64,000 nucleotides of DNA. Source: an uncultured Eubacterium sp. (lineage in GTDB: Bacteria > Bacillota > Clostridia > Oscillospirales > Acutalibacteraceae). The notes under the pieces are model-generated. The model was not told the origin of the DNA and made no database searches. It worked only from the letters and a program-made list of their open reading frames with translations. Location of the stretch: the NCBI RefSeq assembly GCF_945980375.1, contig NZ_CAMFQO010000001.1:124001-188000 (forward strand), read 5' to 3'. Shown piece by piece: positions 8,893 through 61,651 of the stretch; position 1 is the first letter of the stretch; the number at the start of each line of letters is the position of its first letter. A program made the position numbers and the translations under genes.

Positions 8893-8949
8893 TTTAGTTT
8901 ACCTCCATAATTATTTTGCCGCAGGTGCGGACTTTAGGAGCTATCCAAA

Positions 8950-9090
8950 CAAATATAAAAGTGCATCCCCAAAATTCGAGGATGCACGACATTACATAAT
9001 TACGCACCTAAGTGCTACATAATGCTCATTCCTCGGTAGGCGACAATGCTTATGTCACAGGGACACCTACTGTCTTTGGTTGAACAGCTT
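8950..9090 (-). ncRNA. L10 leader (ribosomal protein autoregulatory RNA)
   Basis: Between rplA and rplJ the - strand carries the typical L10-leader elements: AACCAAAGACAGTAGGTG near the start, the matching CGCCTACCGAGG arm, then downstream helices. A terminator hairpin (8961-8987, GTGCATCC / GGATGCAC) followed by TTTT would act as the attenuator. In known cases excess L10(L12)4 binds the leader and lowers rplJL expression. The match was made by eye, without a covariance model. Confidence 0.85.
8953..8987 (-). terminator. attenuator hairpin within the L10 leader
   Basis: The stem GTGCATCCTCGAA / TTTTGGGGATGCAC is followed on the - strand by a T-rich run. It lies about 60 bp before the rplJ start, where premature termination would set rplJL output. 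Confidence 0.75.
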
Positions 9091-9094
9091 GTAT

Positions 9095-9123
9095 ATTGTA
9101 TCACAAGGAACTAACCTTGTCAA
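9095..9123 (-). promoter_or_regulatory. sigma-70-type promoter of rplJL
   Basis: On the - strand TTGACA (9118-9123) and TACAAT (9095-9100) are separated by 17 bp, just before the L10 leader. It lets rplJL be expressed apart from the upstream rplK-rplA genes. Confidence 0.85.
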
Positions 9124-56222: not shown

Positions 56223-56499
56223 TAGGCAATAAAGAGTAATCTGAGCCTGCCAAAAATGCAGAATTAAAGCGACTTTTGAAATTTTCGCTGTCGCCTTGCG
56301 TCAGCAAGGCTTCCATCTCAAAATCCAAAATTCATCTTTACTTCAAGCATTTTTGGTCTGCGAGTTCAAATTGTGCTGATTTGTTCTTAATCAAGGCACA
56401 AAAACGCAGGAATACTTTTTGTATTCCGAGTATTTTTAACACAGAGTAAGAGCAAATCAGCCAATTTGAACCACGGTTCGGATTGCTCTTTATTGCCTA
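56223..56499 (-). repeat. ~277-bp structured element, copy 1 (MITE or unknown RNA)
   Basis: The element runs from TAGGCAATAAAGAG to CTCTTTATTGCCTA. Read on the - strand it folds as an outer stem (~20 bp) and a second long stem. Within these are a GGAATAC/GTATTCC hairpin, a CAAAAATGC/GCATTTTTG stem, a GCCTTGC/GCAAGGC hairpin and an AGCGA/TCGCT stem. Copy 2 at 61373 keeps all of these with different sequence in several helices. There is no reading frame of note. It fills the gap between the DnaD gene and the upstream phosphodiesterase gene. Confidence 0.85.
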
Positions 56500-56547
56500 C
56501 CAAATATTTTACCAAAATTCAGCCCTTTGTTCAACCACAACATAAAG

Positions 56548-56569
56548 GGACATTCTTGCGAATGTCCAC
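56548..56569 (-). terminator. probable terminator after the phosphodiesterase gene
   Basis: GGACATTC-TTGC-GAATGTCC is a perfect 8-bp hairpin 11 bp past the stop. The following - strand sequence (CCTTTATG) is only weakly T-rich. Confidence 0.45.
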
Positions 56570-56579
56570 AATATACATA

Positions 56580-57455
56580 TTAATAAGTAATGCAATCTGT
56601 TGTAATCATATAAACGCCAAGCTCCAAAAGCTTTTTAAGGGTGTCCATATCATTAATAGTCCAGGCGCCCATATTCAAGCCCTCGTCCTTGCACTTTTTT
56701 ATCATTGCGCTGTCGTTATCGTAATTTGCCTGATTGTTGCCGTCAAAATCAATACCGCAATTTTCAAGTGATTTTGCAAGCTCAATATCTTCATCCTTAA
56801 TTTCCTTAACAAGATACATAAGGGGCTTGTCGGTGACTTGACGAAGTGCCTGAAGGTCGCTGAATTGGAAGGAAATAAAGGTAATATTAACCAATGGATA
56901 TTCGTTGCAAATATCAATTATTTCGTTATAGTATTCCTGATTATTATCCTCCTTAAGTTCAATCACGGCACGCATATTGTAATTGTTGCACACTCTCATA
57001 TAGTCAACAAATCTGCAAATACGAAGCTCTGGGTACTTGTCGATATTCACACCGTTATCGGTATATCCGTCCAAAAGCTCCTCGTAGGTTGAGCTTTCAA
57101 TCATTTTGCTGATGTCCATCATACGATAGGTTGAACGGTCGTGATGAACAACCCACACGCCGTCCTTGGTGCGATATATATCACACTCCGCGCCCCAATA
57201 CTCTGCCTCGCCTGCCTCTATAAATGCAGGCTCCGTATTTTCGGGAGCATATCCTCTAAAGCCGCGGTGTGCCACAAGGAGCGGACGTTGTTCAAGATTG
57301 TCACCGATAGCGGTAATTTGATAGTCCTTTGTTTTGCAATATTCCCTAAGCACTATTGCGCCTGCCGAGGTTATCACAATTACAAGTGCCAAAAAAACGC
57401 ACAGCACCGCAATCAATATCTTTTTTCCTTTACTAAGCTTTACCTTACTGTTCAT
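56580..57455 (-). CDS. membrane-anchored glycerophosphodiester phosphodiesterase
   Basis: The 291-residue protein has an N-terminal membrane anchor (ILIAVLCVFLALVIVITSAG) and a GDPD barrel: LVAHRGFRGYAPENTEPAFI with the His-Arg and Glu-Asn-Thr motif, EYWGAECDIYRTKDGVWVVH, and a C-terminal GAWTINDMDTL. It releases glycerol 3-phosphate from phosphodiesters, probably outside the membrane. ATG 57455 follows AAAGGAG and overlaps the end of the nitroreductase gene. Confidence 0.92.
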   Translation of the reverse strand: MNSKVKLSKGKKILIAVLCVFLALVIVITSAGAIVLREYCKTKDYQITAIGDNLEQRPLLVAHRGFRGYAPENTEPAFIEAGEAEYWGAECDIYRTKDGVWVVHHDRSTYRMMDISKMIESSTYEELLDGYTDNGVNIDKYPELRICRFVDYMRVCNNYNMRAVIELKEDNNQEYYNEIIDICNEYPLVNITFISFQFSDLQALRQVTDKPLMYLVKEIKDEDIELAKSLENCGIDFDGNNQANYDNDSAMIKKCKDEGLNMGAWTINDMDTLKKLLELGVYMITTDCITY

Positions 57456-58218
57456 CGTTATTCTCCTTTGGTTCAAATTTTAATCGTTGAGGCTCCGAAA
57501 CCTCAAAAACATTTTCAAGGCTCCATTTACCGTTTATGCCCTTTGCCCTTGTGCCTATTACAAAATGAAGCTTTGCAATGCCGAAATCAATGCTTTTGTC
57601 CGAATAAGGCTCATCAACATAGGCGGAAAAGATTCCGTTTTCGTATCTGAATTTTACAGGTCGTCTGTTCACCGCGGACGGTCCCTTTTCCACAAGCTTT
57701 AAGGCATAGGAATATGCTTCAGGTAGCTTTTCGTCACAAACCTCAATCATATCCTGATAGCTTTTGCTCTTTTTGTGTGTGGCAGAATACATACTTTTTT
57801 CTACGATGGAATATCTGTCCCTCGCGTAGCCGATTGCAATAACAGCATACACTCTTTTTTCACTTGGAAAATCAAAGCTTTCGTACACCTTATTTTCGTT
57901 ATATGTACCGCTGACCCAGCATGTGCCCAAACCGTGATACACGCATTGCAAAACAATGCTCTCTCCGTAGTAGCCGCAATCCTCACGAGCCTTTTGGCTG
58001 TCAGGTCCGGCAACTATTATCATACTGAATTTTCCGCTGAATATTTTGAAAAAGGGTGTGGCATCGTCAACAAAAACAAAGTCAAGCCCTGCACTTTCGT
58101 TAACAACGTCTACCATCTGCTTAATTACATCCTTAACATCATCTGCAAGGTGCTTTGGCTTGAACGCCCTGCGAGAATGTCTTTTTTCTATTGCTTCAAT
58201 GTATTGTTCATTAGTCAT
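57445..58218 (-). CDS. nitroreductase-family flavoprotein
   Basis: The 257-residue protein has the N-terminal FMN-binding KRHSRRAFKPKHL and the DCGYYGESIVLQCVYHGLGT helix with GTCWVSG, then an extended C-terminal half. This fits the two-domain (TM1586-like) nitroreductase family rather than classical NfsB. Substrate unknown. ATG 58218 is chosen; GTG 58233 is possible. It overlaps the phosphodiesterase gene. Confidence 0.87.
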   Translation of the reverse strand: MTNEQYIEAIEKRHSRRAFKPKHLADDVKDVIKQMVDVVNESAGLDFVFVDDATPFFKIFSGKFSMIIVAGPDSQKAREDCGYYGESIVLQCVYHGLGTCWVSGTYNENKVYESFDFPSEKRVYAVIAIGYARDRYSIVEKSMYSATHKKSKSYQDMIEVCDEKLPEAYSYALKLVEKGPSAVNRRPVKFRYENGIFSAYVDEPYSDKSIDFGIAKLHFVIGTRAKGINGKWSLENVFEVSEPQRLKFEPKENNDEQ

Positions 58219-58323
58219 ACTTATTACCGTCACCCTGTCTTTTCTATATTATAGCATTAAAATACAAAAAAGTATATAATATTTTATTACCAATATTCAA
58301 ATGTAAATAGTTGGTTAAATTGC

Positions 58324-58352
58324 TTGACTTTAACACAGGGTGATATTATAAT
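58324..58352 (+). promoter_or_regulatory. promoter of the small membrane protein gene
   Basis: TTGACT and TATAAT are 17 bp apart, 31 bp before the ATG. Confidence 0.83.
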
Positions 58353-58383
58353 AATTGTAGAATATTTAAGGGGGTTCATAATA

Positions 58384-58653
58384 ATGAATTTCAAGAAAAT
58401 CATAAAGGTTATCAGTGTTATTGCTGCTCTTGTTGCTGTTGCCGCAGCTGTATATGTAGCAGTTCAAAAGCTTACTGCAAAAAAGCAGCCGGAATATTTT
58501 GACGATAACGATTTCTTTGAATGTGATAATGAGATTGAAATTGTTGAGGTTGAAAACGAGCCTGAGGCAGAGGAAGCTGTAAAGGAGGAGCCAAAGAAAA
58601 AGGCTGCCCCAAAGAAAAATAACAAAAAGCCGGCAAAGGCAGACGCTGAATAA
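58384..58653 (+). CDS. small membrane-anchored acidic/lysine-rich protein, unknown
   Basis: The 89-residue protein has one N-terminal membrane helix (VISVIAALVAVAAAVYVAV), then an acidic stretch (EYFDDNDFFECDNEIEIVEV) and a Lys/Ala/Pro tail (KKKAAPKKNNKKPAKADAE). It has its own strong promoter and terminator. ATG 58384 follows GGGGG. No family is recognised. Similar short proteins are common in Ruminococcaceae, but a role is not known to me. Confidence 0.82.
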   Translation: MNFKKIIKVISVIAALVAVAAAVYVAVQKLTAKKQPEYFDDNDFFECDNEIEIVEVENEPEAEEAVKEEPKKKAAPKKNNKKPAKADAE

Positions 58654-58655
58654 TC

Positions 58656-58687
58656 AAAGAGCAACTAAGGTTGCTCTTTATTTTTAA
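58656..58687 (+). terminator. intrinsic terminator after the small membrane protein gene
   Basis: AAAGAGCAAC / GTTGCTCTTT with a TAAG loop is followed by ATTTTTA. Confidence 0.88.
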
Positions 58688-58702
58688 CGGACGGTAATAG
58701 AT

Positions 58703-59560
58703 ATGTACAATGTAGGTTTGGTCCTTGAAGGCGGAGGCAACCGTGCAATATACACAAGCGGTGTGCTTGACGCTTTTATGGAAAACGATGTTAGGTTCCC
58801 TTATACAATAGGAGTATCGGCAGGTAGCTGTAACGCAACCTCATTTATTGCAGGCAACCATGGGCGACAGCACGATTTGGAAATAAATTATGTTAACGAC
58901 AAAAGATATATGGGCATAAGCAATTTGCTTAAGGGGCACGGCTTTCTAAACACCGATTGGATATTCGGCGAGCTTGCCTACGATATTTTGCCGCTTAATC
59001 AGGACGCCTTTGATGAAAATATAAAGAGCACTGTGCTTTGTGCAGTGGCAACAAACTCAACAACAGGCAAGCCCGAATATTTTTATCCCAAAAGTATGCG
59101 AGACGGCTGTCCTGAGCTAAAGGCAAGCTGTTCTCTTCCGGGAATTACAAACGGGGTTGAAATCGGCGGTATAAAATTTTTTGACGGCGGTCTTGTTGAT
59201 TCTATCCCGTTACAGCATGCATTTGATGACGGATGCCAAAAAGCCGTTGTCATCCTTACTCAGCACAAGGGATATGTTAAGGAGCCTGTTAATCCAAAGG
59301 CAGAGCGTATTTTCAAAAAATATCCAAAAATCGGCGAGGCTGTTGTTAACAGACATATTATGTATAACAAACAGCTTGAGCTTGTTAATGAGGCAGAAGA
59401 AAACGGCACGGCGCTTGTTATCAGACCGACTGCCCCGCTCGGCACATCTACGCTTGAAAGAGATGTTTCAAAGCTTGAGGCTATTTATCAGCTTGGCTAC
59501 AAGCAGGGACTGCAAAGGGCGCAGGAGGTCAAGGAATTTATTAAGGAGGCACAACAATGA
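58703..59560 (+). CDS. patatin-like phospholipase
   Basis: The 285-residue protein has the oxyanion loop LEGGGNRAIYTSGVLDAF, the nucleophile elbow GVSAGSCNATSF (Ser near 39) and the Asp of the dyad in KFFDGGLVDSIPLQHA (near residue 161). It is a cytoplasmic lipid acyl hydrolase of the YjjU type. It overlaps the following gene by 4 bp. The Shine-Dalgarno is weak. Confidence 0.94.
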   Translation: MYNVGLVLEGGGNRAIYTSGVLDAFMENDVRFPYTIGVSAGSCNATSFIAGNHGRQHDLEINYVNDKRYMGISNLLKGHGFLNTDWIFGELAYDILPLNQDAFDENIKSTVLCAVATNSTTGKPEYFYPKSMRDGCPELKASCSLPGITNGVEIGGIKFFDGGLVDSIPLQHAFDDGCQKAVVILTQHKGYVKEPVNPKAERIFKKYPKIGEAVVNRHIMYNKQLELVNEAEENGTALVIRPTAPLGTSTLERDVSKLEAIYQLGYKQGLQRAQEVKEFIKEAQQ

Positions 59561-59907
59561 TTATTGCAGTAACATATGATAACGGGGTAATCAATCAGCA
59601 TTTTGGCAAAACCCAATATATGAAGATTTACGAAACAAACGAAAGCAAAGAAATCCAAAAGGTTCACCTTGAAAGCATGGGCAAGCATACTCACCACGGT
59701 ATTGCAGGCTACATCAAGGAAATAGGGGTTGATGTGCTGATTTGCGGAGGGCTCGGCCAGGGAGCAGTAGATGCACTTGAAGCCGCAGGAATTACAATTT
59801 ATGCCGGCAACACGGGTAACTGTGACAGTGCGGTAATCTCATTTCTTAACGGAAGTATGGTGCAAAACAGCAAGGCAAATTGCAACCATCACCACGAGCA
59901 CCATTAA
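59557..59907 (+). CDS. NifX/NifB-type dinitrogenase iron-molybdenum cofactor family protein
   Basis: The 116-residue protein has the family core MIIAVTYDNGVINQHFGKTQ, then GADVLIC-like IGVDVLICGGLGQGAVDALE and a His-rich end (NHHHEHH). The family binds iron-sulfur or iron-molybdenum clusters. Members outside nitrogen fixers have unknown roles. No nif genes are near. The His-rich tail may bind metal. Confidence 0.88.
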   Translation: MIIAVTYDNGVINQHFGKTQYMKIYETNESKEIQKVHLESMGKHTHHGIAGYIKEIGVDVLICGGLGQGAVDALEAAGITIYAGNTGNCDSAVISFLNGSMVQNSKANCNHHHEHH

Positions 59908-59924
59908 TGATTAAACAAAAAGAA

Positions 59925-59965
59925 AACACTCATATCCGTTCGCTCCGGATGTGAGTGTTATTTTT
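59925..59965. terminator. terminator between the NifX-like gene and the QueT gene
   Basis: AACACTCATATCCG and CGGATGTGAGTGTT pair almost fully around a short loop, with TTTTT after it on the + strand. The convergent QueT gene ends 5 bp beyond. Confidence 0.87.
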
Positions 59966-59969
59966 GTGT

Positions 59970-60512
59970 TTATTCGGGCTTTTTAATCACCGTTTTGTTA
60001 AGATTATTTTTGATGATGATAAAGTACAGAGCCGTTCCGAGCACCGCCATTACACCAAGCTCACCCAAGGCAACCAAACCACCTTGAGTTAAAAATCCTA
60101 CAAATTCAAAGTCGCCCTCAATAAAGAAATGCTCAATTTCCCATCCAATGATTACACCGTTCCATACAGCAGGCATAAGCATTGCCAAAAGCGGATACTT
60201 GCCAAGCTTAACATTCCTCAGCGCATACATACAAATTGCAGAGCCGAGCGTTGCCAACGAGCCGAAAATCATATCGAGCGGCAGGCCTTGACCGATGCTT
60301 GCAATGTTAGAAATCACACAGCCAAGGGTTAGCCCCGGAATAGCCGCAGGGGTAAACAACGCCAAAACATTAAGTGCCTCCGATGCCCTGAACTGAACAG
60401 CCATTGTTGTTGTGCCGGGCAAAATAAGGTTTTGCGCATAGGTCAGCGCAGCGTACATTGCCCCGATTATTGCAGTTTGTGCAATAAAAGCATTTTTCTT
60501 TTTGATACTCAT
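59970..60512 (-). CDS. queT: queuosine-precursor transporter QueT family
   Basis: The 180-residue protein is hydrophobic with about six membrane segments. It has the QueT family stretches AIIGAMYAALTYAQNLILPG, QFRASEALNVLALFTPAAIP and GCVISNIASIGQGLPLDMIF. It is an S component likely to take up queuine precursors such as preQ1 together with an ECF module. The gene lies directly behind a riboswitch-like leader. ATG 60512 has AAAGGAG 10 bases upstream. Confidence 0.9.
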   Translation of the reverse strand: MSIKKKNAFIAQTAIIGAMYAALTYAQNLILPGTTTMAVQFRASEALNVLALFTPAAIPGLTLGCVISNIASIGQGLPLDMIFGSLATLGSAICMYALRNVKLGKYPLLAMLMPAVWNGVIIGWEIEHFFIEGDFEFVGFLTQGGLVALGELGVMAVLGTALYFIIIKNNLNKTVIKKPE

Positions 60513-60520
60513 TTTCAATT

Positions 60521-60584
60521 TTCTCCTTTAGTTTTGTTTTTAGAAGCCACAGGCATGTGACTGGTCAGGATTTTGCGAACTGAC
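60521..60584 (-). ncRNA. preQ1 riboswitch (class III-like) upstream of queT
   Basis: On the - strand GTCAG-TTCGCAAAATC-CTGAC forms a stem whose loop carries UUCGCA as in preQ1 aptamers. A second hairpin (AGTCACA-TGCC-TGTGGCT) follows, then an A-rich tail ACAAAACTAAAGGAG in which AAGG can pair with the CC of the first loop and includes the Shine-Dalgarno. The inserted helix fits the class III layout known from Ruminococcaceae queT leaders. Ligand binding would hide the ribosome site. Confidence 0.7.
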
Positions 60585-60642
60585 AAAGGAGATTATAATA
60601 TAAAACCAAAGGAAAAGCAAGAAAAATATTATGAAAGCATTA

Positions 60643-60696
60643 ATCCCCTCAGTCGCATATAAAATGCGACAGCTCCCCTTATTTGTAAGAGGAGCC
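60643..60696 (+). repeat. CCCCTCAG-type intergenic repeat, copy E
   Basis: ATCCCCTCAGTCGCAT, an inner TCGCAT/ATGCGA hairpin, then CAGCTCCCCTTAT and the closing AGAGGAGCC arm. It lies between the QueT riboswitch and the end of the phosphatase gene, with no ATTGAAC-type terminator beside it. Confidence 0.78.
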
Positions 60697-60709
60697 GTAA
60701 TCGGTTAAA

Positions 60710-61309
60710 TCATAATGCTTTTTTTATTGCCTCAAGCAATTCATCATATTCCTCATAAGCAGGAATGTTAGGATAATCATTTTTGATAGCATCTGTTGTC
60801 TTGAACAAAAAGCCTGCCTTGCTTGCCTGAATCATACCCAAATCGTTAAAGCTGTCACCGCTTGCAATAGTTTCGTAGCCCATAGAATGAAGTGCCTTAA
60901 CGGTTGTAAGCTTTGACTTTGGGCACCTCATTTTGTAGCCTGTGATTTTACCGTCATCTGCAACCTCAAGAGTGTTGCAGAAAATTGTCGGCCAGTTAAG
61001 CTTTTCCATAAGCGGAGCGGCAAACTGCTCAAAGGTATCCGACAAAATGATAACCTGTGTGATTGTGCGAAGCTCATCCAAAAAATCCTTTGCGCCCGGC
61101 ATTAAATCAATCTTTGCAATAACATCTTGAATTTCCTTAAGTCCCATACCGTGCTCGTTAAGAATTTTCAATCTGTAATTCATCAGCTTGTCGTAATCCG
61201 GTTCGTCACGGGTTGTAAGCTTAAGCTCCGGAATGTTTGCCTCCTCGGCAAATTCTACCCAAATTTCAGGGACGAGAACGCCCTCCATATCCAAACATAC
61301 AATATTCAT
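60710..61309 (-). CDS. thrH: HAD-family phosphatase, ThrH-like (phosphoserine/homoserine)
   Basis: The 199-residue protein has the HAD motif I as DMEGVLVPEIWVEFAE, with DxE in place of DxD, which is the ThrH form. Motif II is VIILSDTFEQF, motif III is the CPKSK lysine, and motif IV is ASGDSFNDLGMI. ThrH acts as phosphoserine phosphatase and can transfer phosphate to homoserine. Without a ser or thr operon nearby, the in vivo role is inferred from the family. Confidence 0.88.
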   Translation of the reverse strand: MNIVCLDMEGVLVPEIWVEFAEEANIPELKLTTRDEPDYDKLMNYRLKILNEHGMGLKEIQDVIAKIDLMPGAKDFLDELRTITQVIILSDTFEQFAAPLMEKLNWPTIFCNTLEVADDGKITGYKMRCPKSKLTTVKALHSMGYETIASGDSFNDLGMIQASKAGFLFKTTDAIKNDYPNIPAYEEYDELLEAIKKAL

Positions 61310-61372
61310 ATCTGTTCACATAGCCTTTCTGCTACAAATTTATTATTTTAAGCCCTATCGTAGCAAATAGGG

Positions 61373-61651
61373 TAGGGTAACGGTAATAATCCGAACCCGT
61401 CAAAAATGCAGTATTAAAGCGATATTTGTCGCTTTCGCTGTTGCCTTGCGTCAGCAAGGCTGCCATCTCAAGATGCCAAATCTCATCTTTACTCCAAGCA
61501 TTTTTGATGCTTTGCAGTTTATCGTGTGCAGATTTGGTCTTAATCGAGGCAAAAACGCAGTTAATCCTTTCGGATTAACGAGTATTTTAACAAAGAGTAA
61601 GGGCAATATCTGCCACGATAAACCGTGGTTTGGATTATTACCGTTACCCTA
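61373..61651 (-). repeat. ~279-bp structured element, copy 2 (MITE or unknown RNA)
   Basis: The element runs from TAGGGTAACGGTAATAATCC to GGATTATTACCGTTACCCTA, a perfect 20-bp inverted pair. Read on the - strand the inner stems are GTTTATCGTG/CACGATAAAC, GTTAATCC-GAAA-GGATTAAC (a GNRA tetraloop), CAAAAATGC/GCATTTTTG, GCCTTGC/GCAAGGC and AAAGCGA/TCGCTTT. It has no reading frame. A separate CCCTAT/ATAGGG hairpin adjoins it at 61354-61371. It lies between the ThrH-like gene and the GH95-like gene. Confidence 0.87.

What the first reader, a model, noticed from the sequence alone, without database searches (positions are those of the whole stretch)
56223..61651. Two ~278-bp intergenic elements with covarying stems: MITE or new structured RNA
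Copies at 56223-56499 and 61373-61651 align over their whole length. The outer stems differ in sequence (TAGGCAATAAAGAG.. versus TAGGGTAACGGTAAT..) yet each copy pairs with its own far end. The second stem (GTTCAAATTG/CAATTTGAAC versus GTTTATCGTG/CACGATAAAC) and an inner hairpin (GGAATAC/GTATTCC versus GTTAATCC/GGATTAAC) also change on both sides together. Other stems are identical. Paired changes point to selection on folding, more like RNA than a transposase-recognised end. The terminal TA on both sides and the inverted ends also fit a Tc1/IS630-type MITE. On the - strand one loop is GAAA, and both neighbours are on the - strand.
Basis: partly seen in the sequence, partly recalled or inferred. 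Interest (0 to 1): 0.85.

Follow-up and report, generated by a model that had tools for sequence, protein, structure and literature searches.

The report
Mobile folded DNA with changeable ends
The two stretches look like copies of a small jumping piece of DNA, found in many gut and rumen bacteria, that keeps its folded shape and the tips of its folds while the letters at its ends change freely, mostly in matching pairs.

Summary
In detail: 56223-56499 and 61373-61651 are two subfamilies of one ~278-bp element. The own genome holds 5 and 4 full copies (93-100% identity) plus copies cut by contig ends. It behaves as a TA-inserting, MITE-like mobile DNA: 26 of 37 genus genomes match, orientation to genes is random, and three sister genomes lack a copy at the orthologous place, one leaving a single TA within one base. 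Two-arm elements of 274-279 bp also occur in 11 genomes outside the genus; the right-arm tip is found in 60 of 394 genomes of the order. Covariation is very strong (71 of 85 pairs changed on both sides), but G·T and A·C mismatches are about equally common (89:73; tRNA control 20:1). That favours pairing kept at the DNA level over selection on an RNA. Unlike a textbook MITE, the terminal repeats change fastest, while the hairpin tips are conserved. No longer element with the same ends, and no IS630-type DDE_3 match in the own genome, was found; other transposase families except Y1 were not searched. My reading: a non-autonomous transposon recognised mainly by its folded shape and tips, moved in trans by an unidentified enzyme.

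The parts
56223..56499 (+). element copy 1 (subfamily F1, ends TAGGCAATAAAGAG), 277 bp, TA at both ends
   Evidence: 5 full copies in the own genome at 96-100% identity
56223..56247 (.). left terminal inverted repeat (outer stem) of copy 1
56475..56499 (.). right terminal inverted repeat (outer stem) of copy 1
56249..56356 (+). left (alpha) arm of copy 1; tip hairpin GCCTTGC-GTCA-GCAAGGC at 56293-56310
   Evidence: (helices 3-7)
56364..56471 (+). right (beta) arm of copy 1, closed by GTTCAAATTG/CAATTTGAAC
   Evidence: helix 8
56383..56450 (+). beta tip of copy 1 (model R1), a 67-position core matched in 60 of 394 genomes of the order
61373..61651 (+). element copy 2 (subfamily F2, ends TAGGGTAACGGTAAT), 279 bp, TA at both ends
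   Evidence: 4 full copies in the own genome at 93-100% identity, 5 more cut by contig ends
61373..61397 (.). left terminal inverted repeat of copy 2
61627..61651 (.). right terminal inverted repeat of copy 2
61443..61460 (+). alpha tip hairpin of copy 2 (GCCTTGC-GTCA-GCAAGGC)
61517..61623 (+). right (beta) arm of copy 2, closed by GTTTATCGTG/CACGATAAAC
61536..61601 (+). beta tip of copy 2 (model R1)

Best explanation
The element is a non-autonomous mobile DNA (MITE-like) that inserts at the dinucleotide TA, doubles it, and is moved in trans by an enzyme not identified here. Its DNA can fold into two hairpin arms on a 25-bp outer stem. Shown: multi-copy spread, TA ends in most copies, empty sites, random orientation, strand-symmetric paired changes, a fast-changing outer stem, conserved tips. 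Inferred: the moving enzyme reads the folded shape (extruded hairpins or a cruciform), the tips and a short inner end motif (about AATCCGAACC) rather than the terminal letters, so the arms drift while pairing is restored by selection on mobility, perhaps helped by copying of one arm onto the other. Subjective odds: mobile DNA element about 0.9; pairing maintained at DNA rather than RNA level about 0.8; recognition by shape and tips about 0.4.
For: Copies: own genome 5 F1 and 4 F2 full copies; 26 of 37 same-genus and 2 of 23 other genomes match, some only by a fragment or the tip. Empty orthologous sites: L005 in G029 (one TA, one-base indels), L001 in G005 (5-base gap) and L006 in G013 (6-base gap), each as one alignment of 341-402 columns across the joint; L088 sits in a repeat of which three copies in G076 lack it (one TA, small indels). 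Of 168 ends of 84 elements, 160 read TAG or TAA; of 35 cases where a frame open for 100 codons or more runs into an end, 18 stop exactly at the element's own TAG/TAA, 9 and 8 lie in the other frames. Gene orientation around 44 copies: 12 ++, 12 --, 10 divergent, 8 convergent, 2 undetermined. Covariation. G·T:A·C 89:73, 50:60, 44:57, tRNA 20:1. In 22 element pairs at 93% identity or more, change per side is 0.062 in the outer stem and 0.016 in inner stems. Tip matched in 38 of 168 genera sampled and on at least four unrelated sets of arms. In genome G083 the same arms carry either the beta tip or a tip like our alpha hairpin.
Against: No mobilising enzyme was found, and no longer element with the same ends: F1 ends (12 of 41 genomes), a second type (3 of 8) and the G083 type (1 genome) pair only at element size or shorter, none at 0.5-5 kb. 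Drafts break at repeats, so a carrier could be missing. Empty sites come from related species, not strains, and two of three have 5-6 base indels. 21 of 105 elements lack TA at one or both ends, some with CA and some perhaps by misplaced boundaries. Strand symmetry of mismatches does not tell selection from passive arm-to-arm correction. At 93% identity or more, one-sided changes dominate (34 one-sided, 9 two-sided in the outer stem, 5 of these keeping a Watson-Crick pair), as expected if many copies decay after insertion; decay would also pull G·T and A·C towards equality. No transcript data were available.
Confidence: 0.6

Rival explanations
1. Ordinary MITE family of a TA-duplicating DDE transposase (IS630 or an IS5/IS427-like group). 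Different end types are served by different transposases, inner sequence is hitchhiking or transposase-binding, and palindromy is restored by copying errors at hairpins rather than by selection on folding.
For: TA ends and empty sites; many end types, several with more than one copy; strand-symmetric mismatches fit passive correction.
Against: No DDE_3 match in the own genome, 98% complete; no end pair at 0.5-5 kb. Ends change faster than the inner stems, the reverse of what sequence recognition of ends predicts. Tips keep uncorrected internal loops in cores read from several families. IS5-type transposases were not searched, so this rival stays open.
Confidence: 0.27
2. A structured RNA (free-standing or cis-acting), spread by a mobile element, with selection on the RNA fold.
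For: Strong folding on both strands; strong covariation; two-arm elements outside the genus are 274-279 bp at 58-70% identity (chosen within 255-300 bp); the C-GNNA-G tips could be RNA tetraloops.
Against: G·T and A·C about equally frequent (control). GNNA on + in 26 of 32 four-base alpha loops and on - in 15 of 17 four-base beta loops (7 of 15 five-base ones), 0 on the other strand. No orientation preference to genes. No Rfam family. Promoter-like sites around the copies are at chance level (17 against 13.9).
Confidence: 0.1
3. REPIN-like: hairpin DNA moved by a Y1 tyrosine transposase (IS200/RAYT).
For: REPINs are DNA hairpins with compensatory changes (PMC3116915, passages); Y1 genes occur in 26 of 60 genus genomes, three matches in the own genome; one own copy lies ~370 bp from an IS200-type gene.
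Against: Genomes with many matches to the element have no Y1 match (G009, G014, G015, G017, G018, G069; completeness 73-96%). Of 20 Y1 loci read, only that one holds a full copy; other matches are of 41 bases or fewer (best E 2e-4, in L191). TA duplication is not known for Y1 enzymes (recalled).
Confidence: 0.08
4. Domesticated regulatory element (terminator, RNase III site or mRNA spacer).
For: Terminator-like sites between 55900 and 62000 exceed shuffles (14 against 6.0, sd 2.1), six of them inside the two copies and on both strands. 31 of 168 flanks have a Shine-Dalgarno-like motif within 10 bases (no control).
Against: Both orientations equally; absent from the orthologous site in sister species; palindromes with A/T runs give terminator-like hits by themselves; such places are also where insertions do least harm.
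Confidence: 0.05

Closest known systems
Bacterial MITEs: RUP, Correia/NEMIS, ERIC, Rickettsia palindromic elements, CIR (review PMC2229807: abstract, section 4 and part 1 of section 5 read)
   Same: Small, highly folded, TA at the termini of most of them, intergenic, multi-copy; CIR also has two hairpin arms
   Different: Longer (278 bp against about 100-200); many end types within one genus while a hairpin tip is conserved over an order; no carrier insertion sequence found
REPINs of RAYT transposases (PMC3116915, passages)
   Same: DNA hairpins with compensatory changes, thought to be spread by an enzyme in trans
   Different: REPINs conserve their outer 16-mers and vary the spacer; here the ends vary and the tips are kept. 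TA target. No link to Y1 genes found
Pneumococcal BOX, RUP and SPRITE repeats (PMC3049150, passages)
   Same: Interspersed structured repeats; BOX is modular, and BOX and RUP pair their terminal repeats
   Different: Pneumococcal families are mostly confined to S. pneumoniae and S. mitis; this one spans an order
Integron attC sites (features recalled; RYYYAAC box mentioned in PMC8632094, passages)
   Same: Recognised by the folded DNA strand; sequence free where pairing is kept
   Different: attC has RYYYAAC/GTTRRRY boxes and no TA duplication; no integrase link tested

Membership tests
MITE (non-autonomous transposon) | small, non-coding, multi-copy | tested here: met
   9 full copies in the own genome; no ORF of 80 aa or more lies inside either window copy
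MITE (non-autonomous transposon) | terminal inverted repeats | tested here: met
   outer 14 bp pair at 11-14 positions in 107 elements (elements had been selected for paired ends)
MITE (non-autonomous transposon) | short target duplication | tested here: met
   one TA at an orthologous empty site within one base (L005 in G029) and in three copies of the repeat that L088 interrupts; two further orthologous sites with 5-6 base indels
MITE (non-autonomous transposon) | autonomous partner with the same ends | tested here: not met
   no end pair at 0.5-5 kb for three end types in 41, 8 and 1 genomes; draft genomes, so absence is weak
IS630/Tc1-type MITE | IS630-type transposase in the host | tested here: not met
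   0 DDE_3 (PF13358) matches in the own genome; the other genomes were not searched
IS5/IS427-type MITE | IS5-type transposase with the same ends | not tested
   -
REPIN/RAYT | Y1 transposase with matching hairpins | tested here: not met
   26 of 60 genomes have Y1, six genomes with many element matches have none; of 20 Y1 loci only one lies near a full copy
Structured RNA | covariation with G·U tolerated over A·C | tested here: not met
   89:73, 50:60, 44:57 against tRNA 20:1
Structured RNA | match to a described RNA family | tested here: not met
Structured RNA | transcription | not testable with these tools
   no RNA-seq at hand
attC | RYYYAAC and GTTRRRY boxes, integron integrase | not tested
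   -

The most novel reading that the evidence does not exclude
An order-wide transposition system whose enzyme recognises folded DNA, meaning two hairpin arms with conserved C-GNNA-G tips on opposite strands, instead of a fixed terminal sequence. The terminal repeats are then free to evolve so long as they pair, and hairpin tips are exchangeable modules on unrelated arms.
Probability: 0.3. Interest if true: 0.8.

Novelty: new variant of a known kind. Interest (0 to 1): 0.6.

Why it matters
Covariation is widely taken as the mark of a functional RNA. Here very strong covariation over some 85 base pairs most likely comes from mobile DNA, and a simple count of G·T against A·C points that way. 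If recognition is by shape, this is a transposon whose ends are not its address, which would explain why repeat finders based on end sequence would split it into many families. It would also give a test case for enzymes that act on extruded hairpins.

Tried and rejected
Structured RNA: set aside as main reading by mismatch symmetry and opposite-strand loops. The pair set (54 pairs) was not filtered for stacking and holds some pairs that belong to no helix; that (47 stacked pairs) holds two that cross the arms. Without those two it is GT 45:AC 52 on 45 pairs; with all 47, outer stem 23:29 and inner stems 27:31. Pairs found only in the + fold or only in the - fold are rich in G·U of that strand (GT 68:AC 2; AC 129:GT 1); they were chosen by folds that allow G·U, so I did not count them. 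Control with the L10 leader: the plain alignment was too poor to give usable helices (5 stacked pairs, GT 9:AC 11; looser 35:29), so I do not lean on it, though it did not show the expected G·U excess either. tRNA genes were used instead; ARAGORN's own pairing rules favour G·U somewhat.

IS630: none in the own genome. Y1 transposases: no link. Phages, plasmids and viral contigs: no match to the window element or to the exact tip patterns used; tip matches on 4 plasmid records. Homology of the alpha arm on + with the beta arm on -: profile similarity 0.31/0.29 at register 0 against 0.20-0.30 and 0.22-0.26 at other registers, and 0.27/0.30 for the wrong strand; not shown. Instant arm-to-arm conversion: not supported, one-sided changes come first. 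L006 in G013 and L088 in G076 were checked again; L088 lies in a repeat, so its 'empty site' is not orthologous.

Not in print as far as searched: nine text searches over the open-access library listed no paper that I recognised as describing this repeat; one search was swamped by unrelated papers, and only listings and the passages named were read.

Rows dropped before counts: L124 (diverged), L279 (end trimmed), copies with identical sequence, elements whose paired-end score was below the cut, L077 in alignment A3 (its edited form had no reference), and for end counts the 21 of 105 elements without TA at both ends within 3 bases. The 69 loci L242-L310 (a few from the own genus: G008, G025, G033) gave 26 elements with TA ends and 255-300 bp, so the narrow length range is partly selected; 25 were kept.
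Full report
What is there. The two intervals are two subfamilies of one element. Both begin and end with TA, both fold into a 25-bp outer stem carrying a left (alpha) and a right (beta) hairpin arm, and both fold far below shuffles on either strand. In the draft own genome (1.77 Mb, 53 contigs, 98% complete) there are 5 full copies of the first type at 96-100% identity and 4 of the second at 93-100%. Five more of the second type are cut by contig ends. Single ends and short deletion derivatives also occur. So this is a repeat that spread recently, not a pair of unique RNA genes.

Spread. Of 60 relatives, 28 have a match: 26 of 37 in the genus (own included) and 2 of 23 outside; in some genomes only a fragment or the tip matches. 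A covariance model of the beta tip, 67 positions, finds it in 60 of 394 genomes of the order, 38 of 168 genera, 15 families; E-values are rough, so the weakest of these may be chance. Reading 69 loci around such tips shows the whole two-arm element in 11 genomes outside the genus (4 families, one of them the own family). There it is 274-279 bp, at only 58-70% identity to genus copies and with other ends (25 elements, chosen within 255-300 bp and with TA ends). Elsewhere the same tip sits on single-arm elements of about 148-176 bp with unrelated arms. In genome G083, a 163-bp element carries on the same arms either the beta tip (L229, L231, L237) or a tip that resembles the alpha hairpin (L230, L232-L236). 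Tip matches lie on one plasmid record of Anaerotruncus colihominis and three of Subdoligranulum variabile; in the two that I read they sit in single-arm relatives. No match was found in the phage records, nor in viral contigs with the exact patterns used.

Mobility. Around 44 copies the flanking genes point ++ in 12, -- in 12, apart in 10 and together in 8, with two undetermined: no orientation preference. Orthologous sites in sister species lack the element. For L005 the joined flanks align with G029 over 341 columns with one TA and one-base indels at the joint; there the TA is that of the TAA stop codon of the upstream gene. For L001 (window copy 1) in G005 and L006 in G013 the alignments also run through (402 and 392 columns) with one TA at the joint but 5- and 6-base indels. 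L088 interrupts a repeat, and three copies of that repeat in G076 lack the element and show one TA. Window copy 2 is also absent from the orthologous place in G005, but the spacer there is too different to show the joint. Of 168 ends of the 84 elements with TA at both ends (of 105), 108 read TAG, 52 TAA, 5 TAT and 3 TAC. Insertion into the TA of a stop codon therefore usually remakes a stop: of 35 cases where a frame open for 100 codons or more runs into an end, 18 stop exactly there, against 9 and 8 in the other two frames. Among frames of 200 codons or more, 8 of 9 do.

Paired changes. On 33 elements less than 86% identical (A3), 85 pairs give 71 with changes on both sides and 570 such cells, against 164.7 in shuffles; sliding the partner gives 106-154. 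All 19 pairs of the outer helix have such changes. But its kind is not that of RNA. On pairs defined by Watson-Crick covariation only, G·T and A·C cells are 44:57 in 44 genus elements (54 pairs, not filtered for stacking) and 50:60 in 34 diverse ones (47 stacked pairs; outer stem 23:29, inner 27:31). With the 85-pair structure they are 89:73. Stems of 18 tRNA genes from the DNA held give 20:1. A second control, the L10 leader, failed for want of a good alignment and showed no G·U excess either (9:11). Decay after insertion would dilute an RNA signal, so this is strong but not absolute. The loops agree: G-N-N-A lies on the + strand in 26 of 32 four-base alpha loops, and on the - strand in 15 of 17 four-base and 7 of 15 five-base beta loops. 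It is on the opposite strand in none, and the closing pair is C-G in 33 and 32 of 33. A single RNA would not need that; a DNA element with a pseudo-dyad might. I could not show sequence homology between the two arms.

Upside-down conservation. In known MITEs the ends are kept because the enzyme binds them (established knowledge, not tested here). Here there are 26 clusters of outer 12-mers among 107 elements, several of them mere register shifts but by eye at least about 15 plainly different. At 93% identity or more, the outer stem changes at 0.062 per side against 0.016 in inner stems. Kept instead are TA plus a purine, an inner end motif near AATCCGAACC, and the tips with their uncorrected internal loops; elements L107 and L108 are an exception, with a changed loop. 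One-sided changes come first and are matched later. Of changed outer pairs, the share changed on both sides is 9 of 43 at 93-100% identity, 38 of 100 at 88-93%, 101 of 187 at 80-88% and 361 of 454 at 65-80%; two-sided changes exceed independence in each class. That fits compensation over time better than instant copying of one arm onto the other.

How it may work. The steps shown are insertion at TA, strand-symmetric pairing, and conserved tips. The step inferred is that the enzyme reads the fold and tips. The enzyme is unknown: no IS630-type DDE_3 domain in the own genome, and no pair of ends at transposon distance for three end types in 41, 8 and 1 genomes. Y1 transposases are absent from six genomes with many element matches, and of 20 Y1 loci read only one, an own IS200-type gene ~370 bp away, lies near a full copy. 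IS5-type and other DDE families were not searched, and draft assemblies lose repeats.

Comparison. MITEs such as RUP, ERIC, Correia, RPE and CIR mostly share TA termini and folding (PMC2229807, abstract, section 4 and part 1 of section 5). BOX and RUP pair their terminal repeats (PMC3049150, passages). REPINs are DNA hairpins with compensatory changes, but with conserved outer 16-mers (PMC3116915, passages). A 2024 review of prokaryotic MITEs does not use words beginning Clostridi-, Ruminococc- or Oscillospir- in its held main text (PMC10969869, word counts and passages). I therefore file it as a new variant of the MITE kind: mobile, TA-inserting, with free ends and fixed tips.

Verdict. The unusual part is that pairing and hairpin tips, not end letters, are what evolution keeps.

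Noticed in passing
L188-L202 (genus genomes G060, G062, G076, G072, G074, G002, G032, G013, G016): Of 15 longer Y1 (RAYT-like) loci read, 11 have hairpins with a GGGG..CCCC-like tip on different stems, another case of kept tip and changing stem.
   Followed up: no
L077 and L123 (genome G001): Two copies with different end types share the same ~50-base insertion inside the beta tip, which suggests a second small mobile sequence or exchange between element types.
   Followed up: no
L112-L121 (genome G029): Ten beta-tip matches in G029 lie outside recognisable two-arm elements; the paired-end search found no clear TA-bounded ends there.
   Followed up: partly
L107, L108 (genome G002): Elements with ends TAACCACTAAACTC have a changed beta tip in which the usual CGCA/GAGTA internal loop is replaced by letters that by eye can mostly pair.
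   Followed up: no
L185 (own genome contig C12): An IS200-type Y1 gene lies about 370 bp from one full F1 copy.
   Followed up: partly
own genome C22:11831-11877 and G015:C2:23567-23634: Very short derivatives that keep little more than the two ends of the element.
   Followed up: no
L134 (genome G076) and the flanks of L088 (G013): Another repeat (with CGTAGGGACGATTATCAATCGTCC) occurs three times in L134; copy L088 of the element has inserted into it.
   Followed up: no
window 8946-9097 (-): Ribosomal protein L10 leader at 70.4 bits.
   Followed up: no
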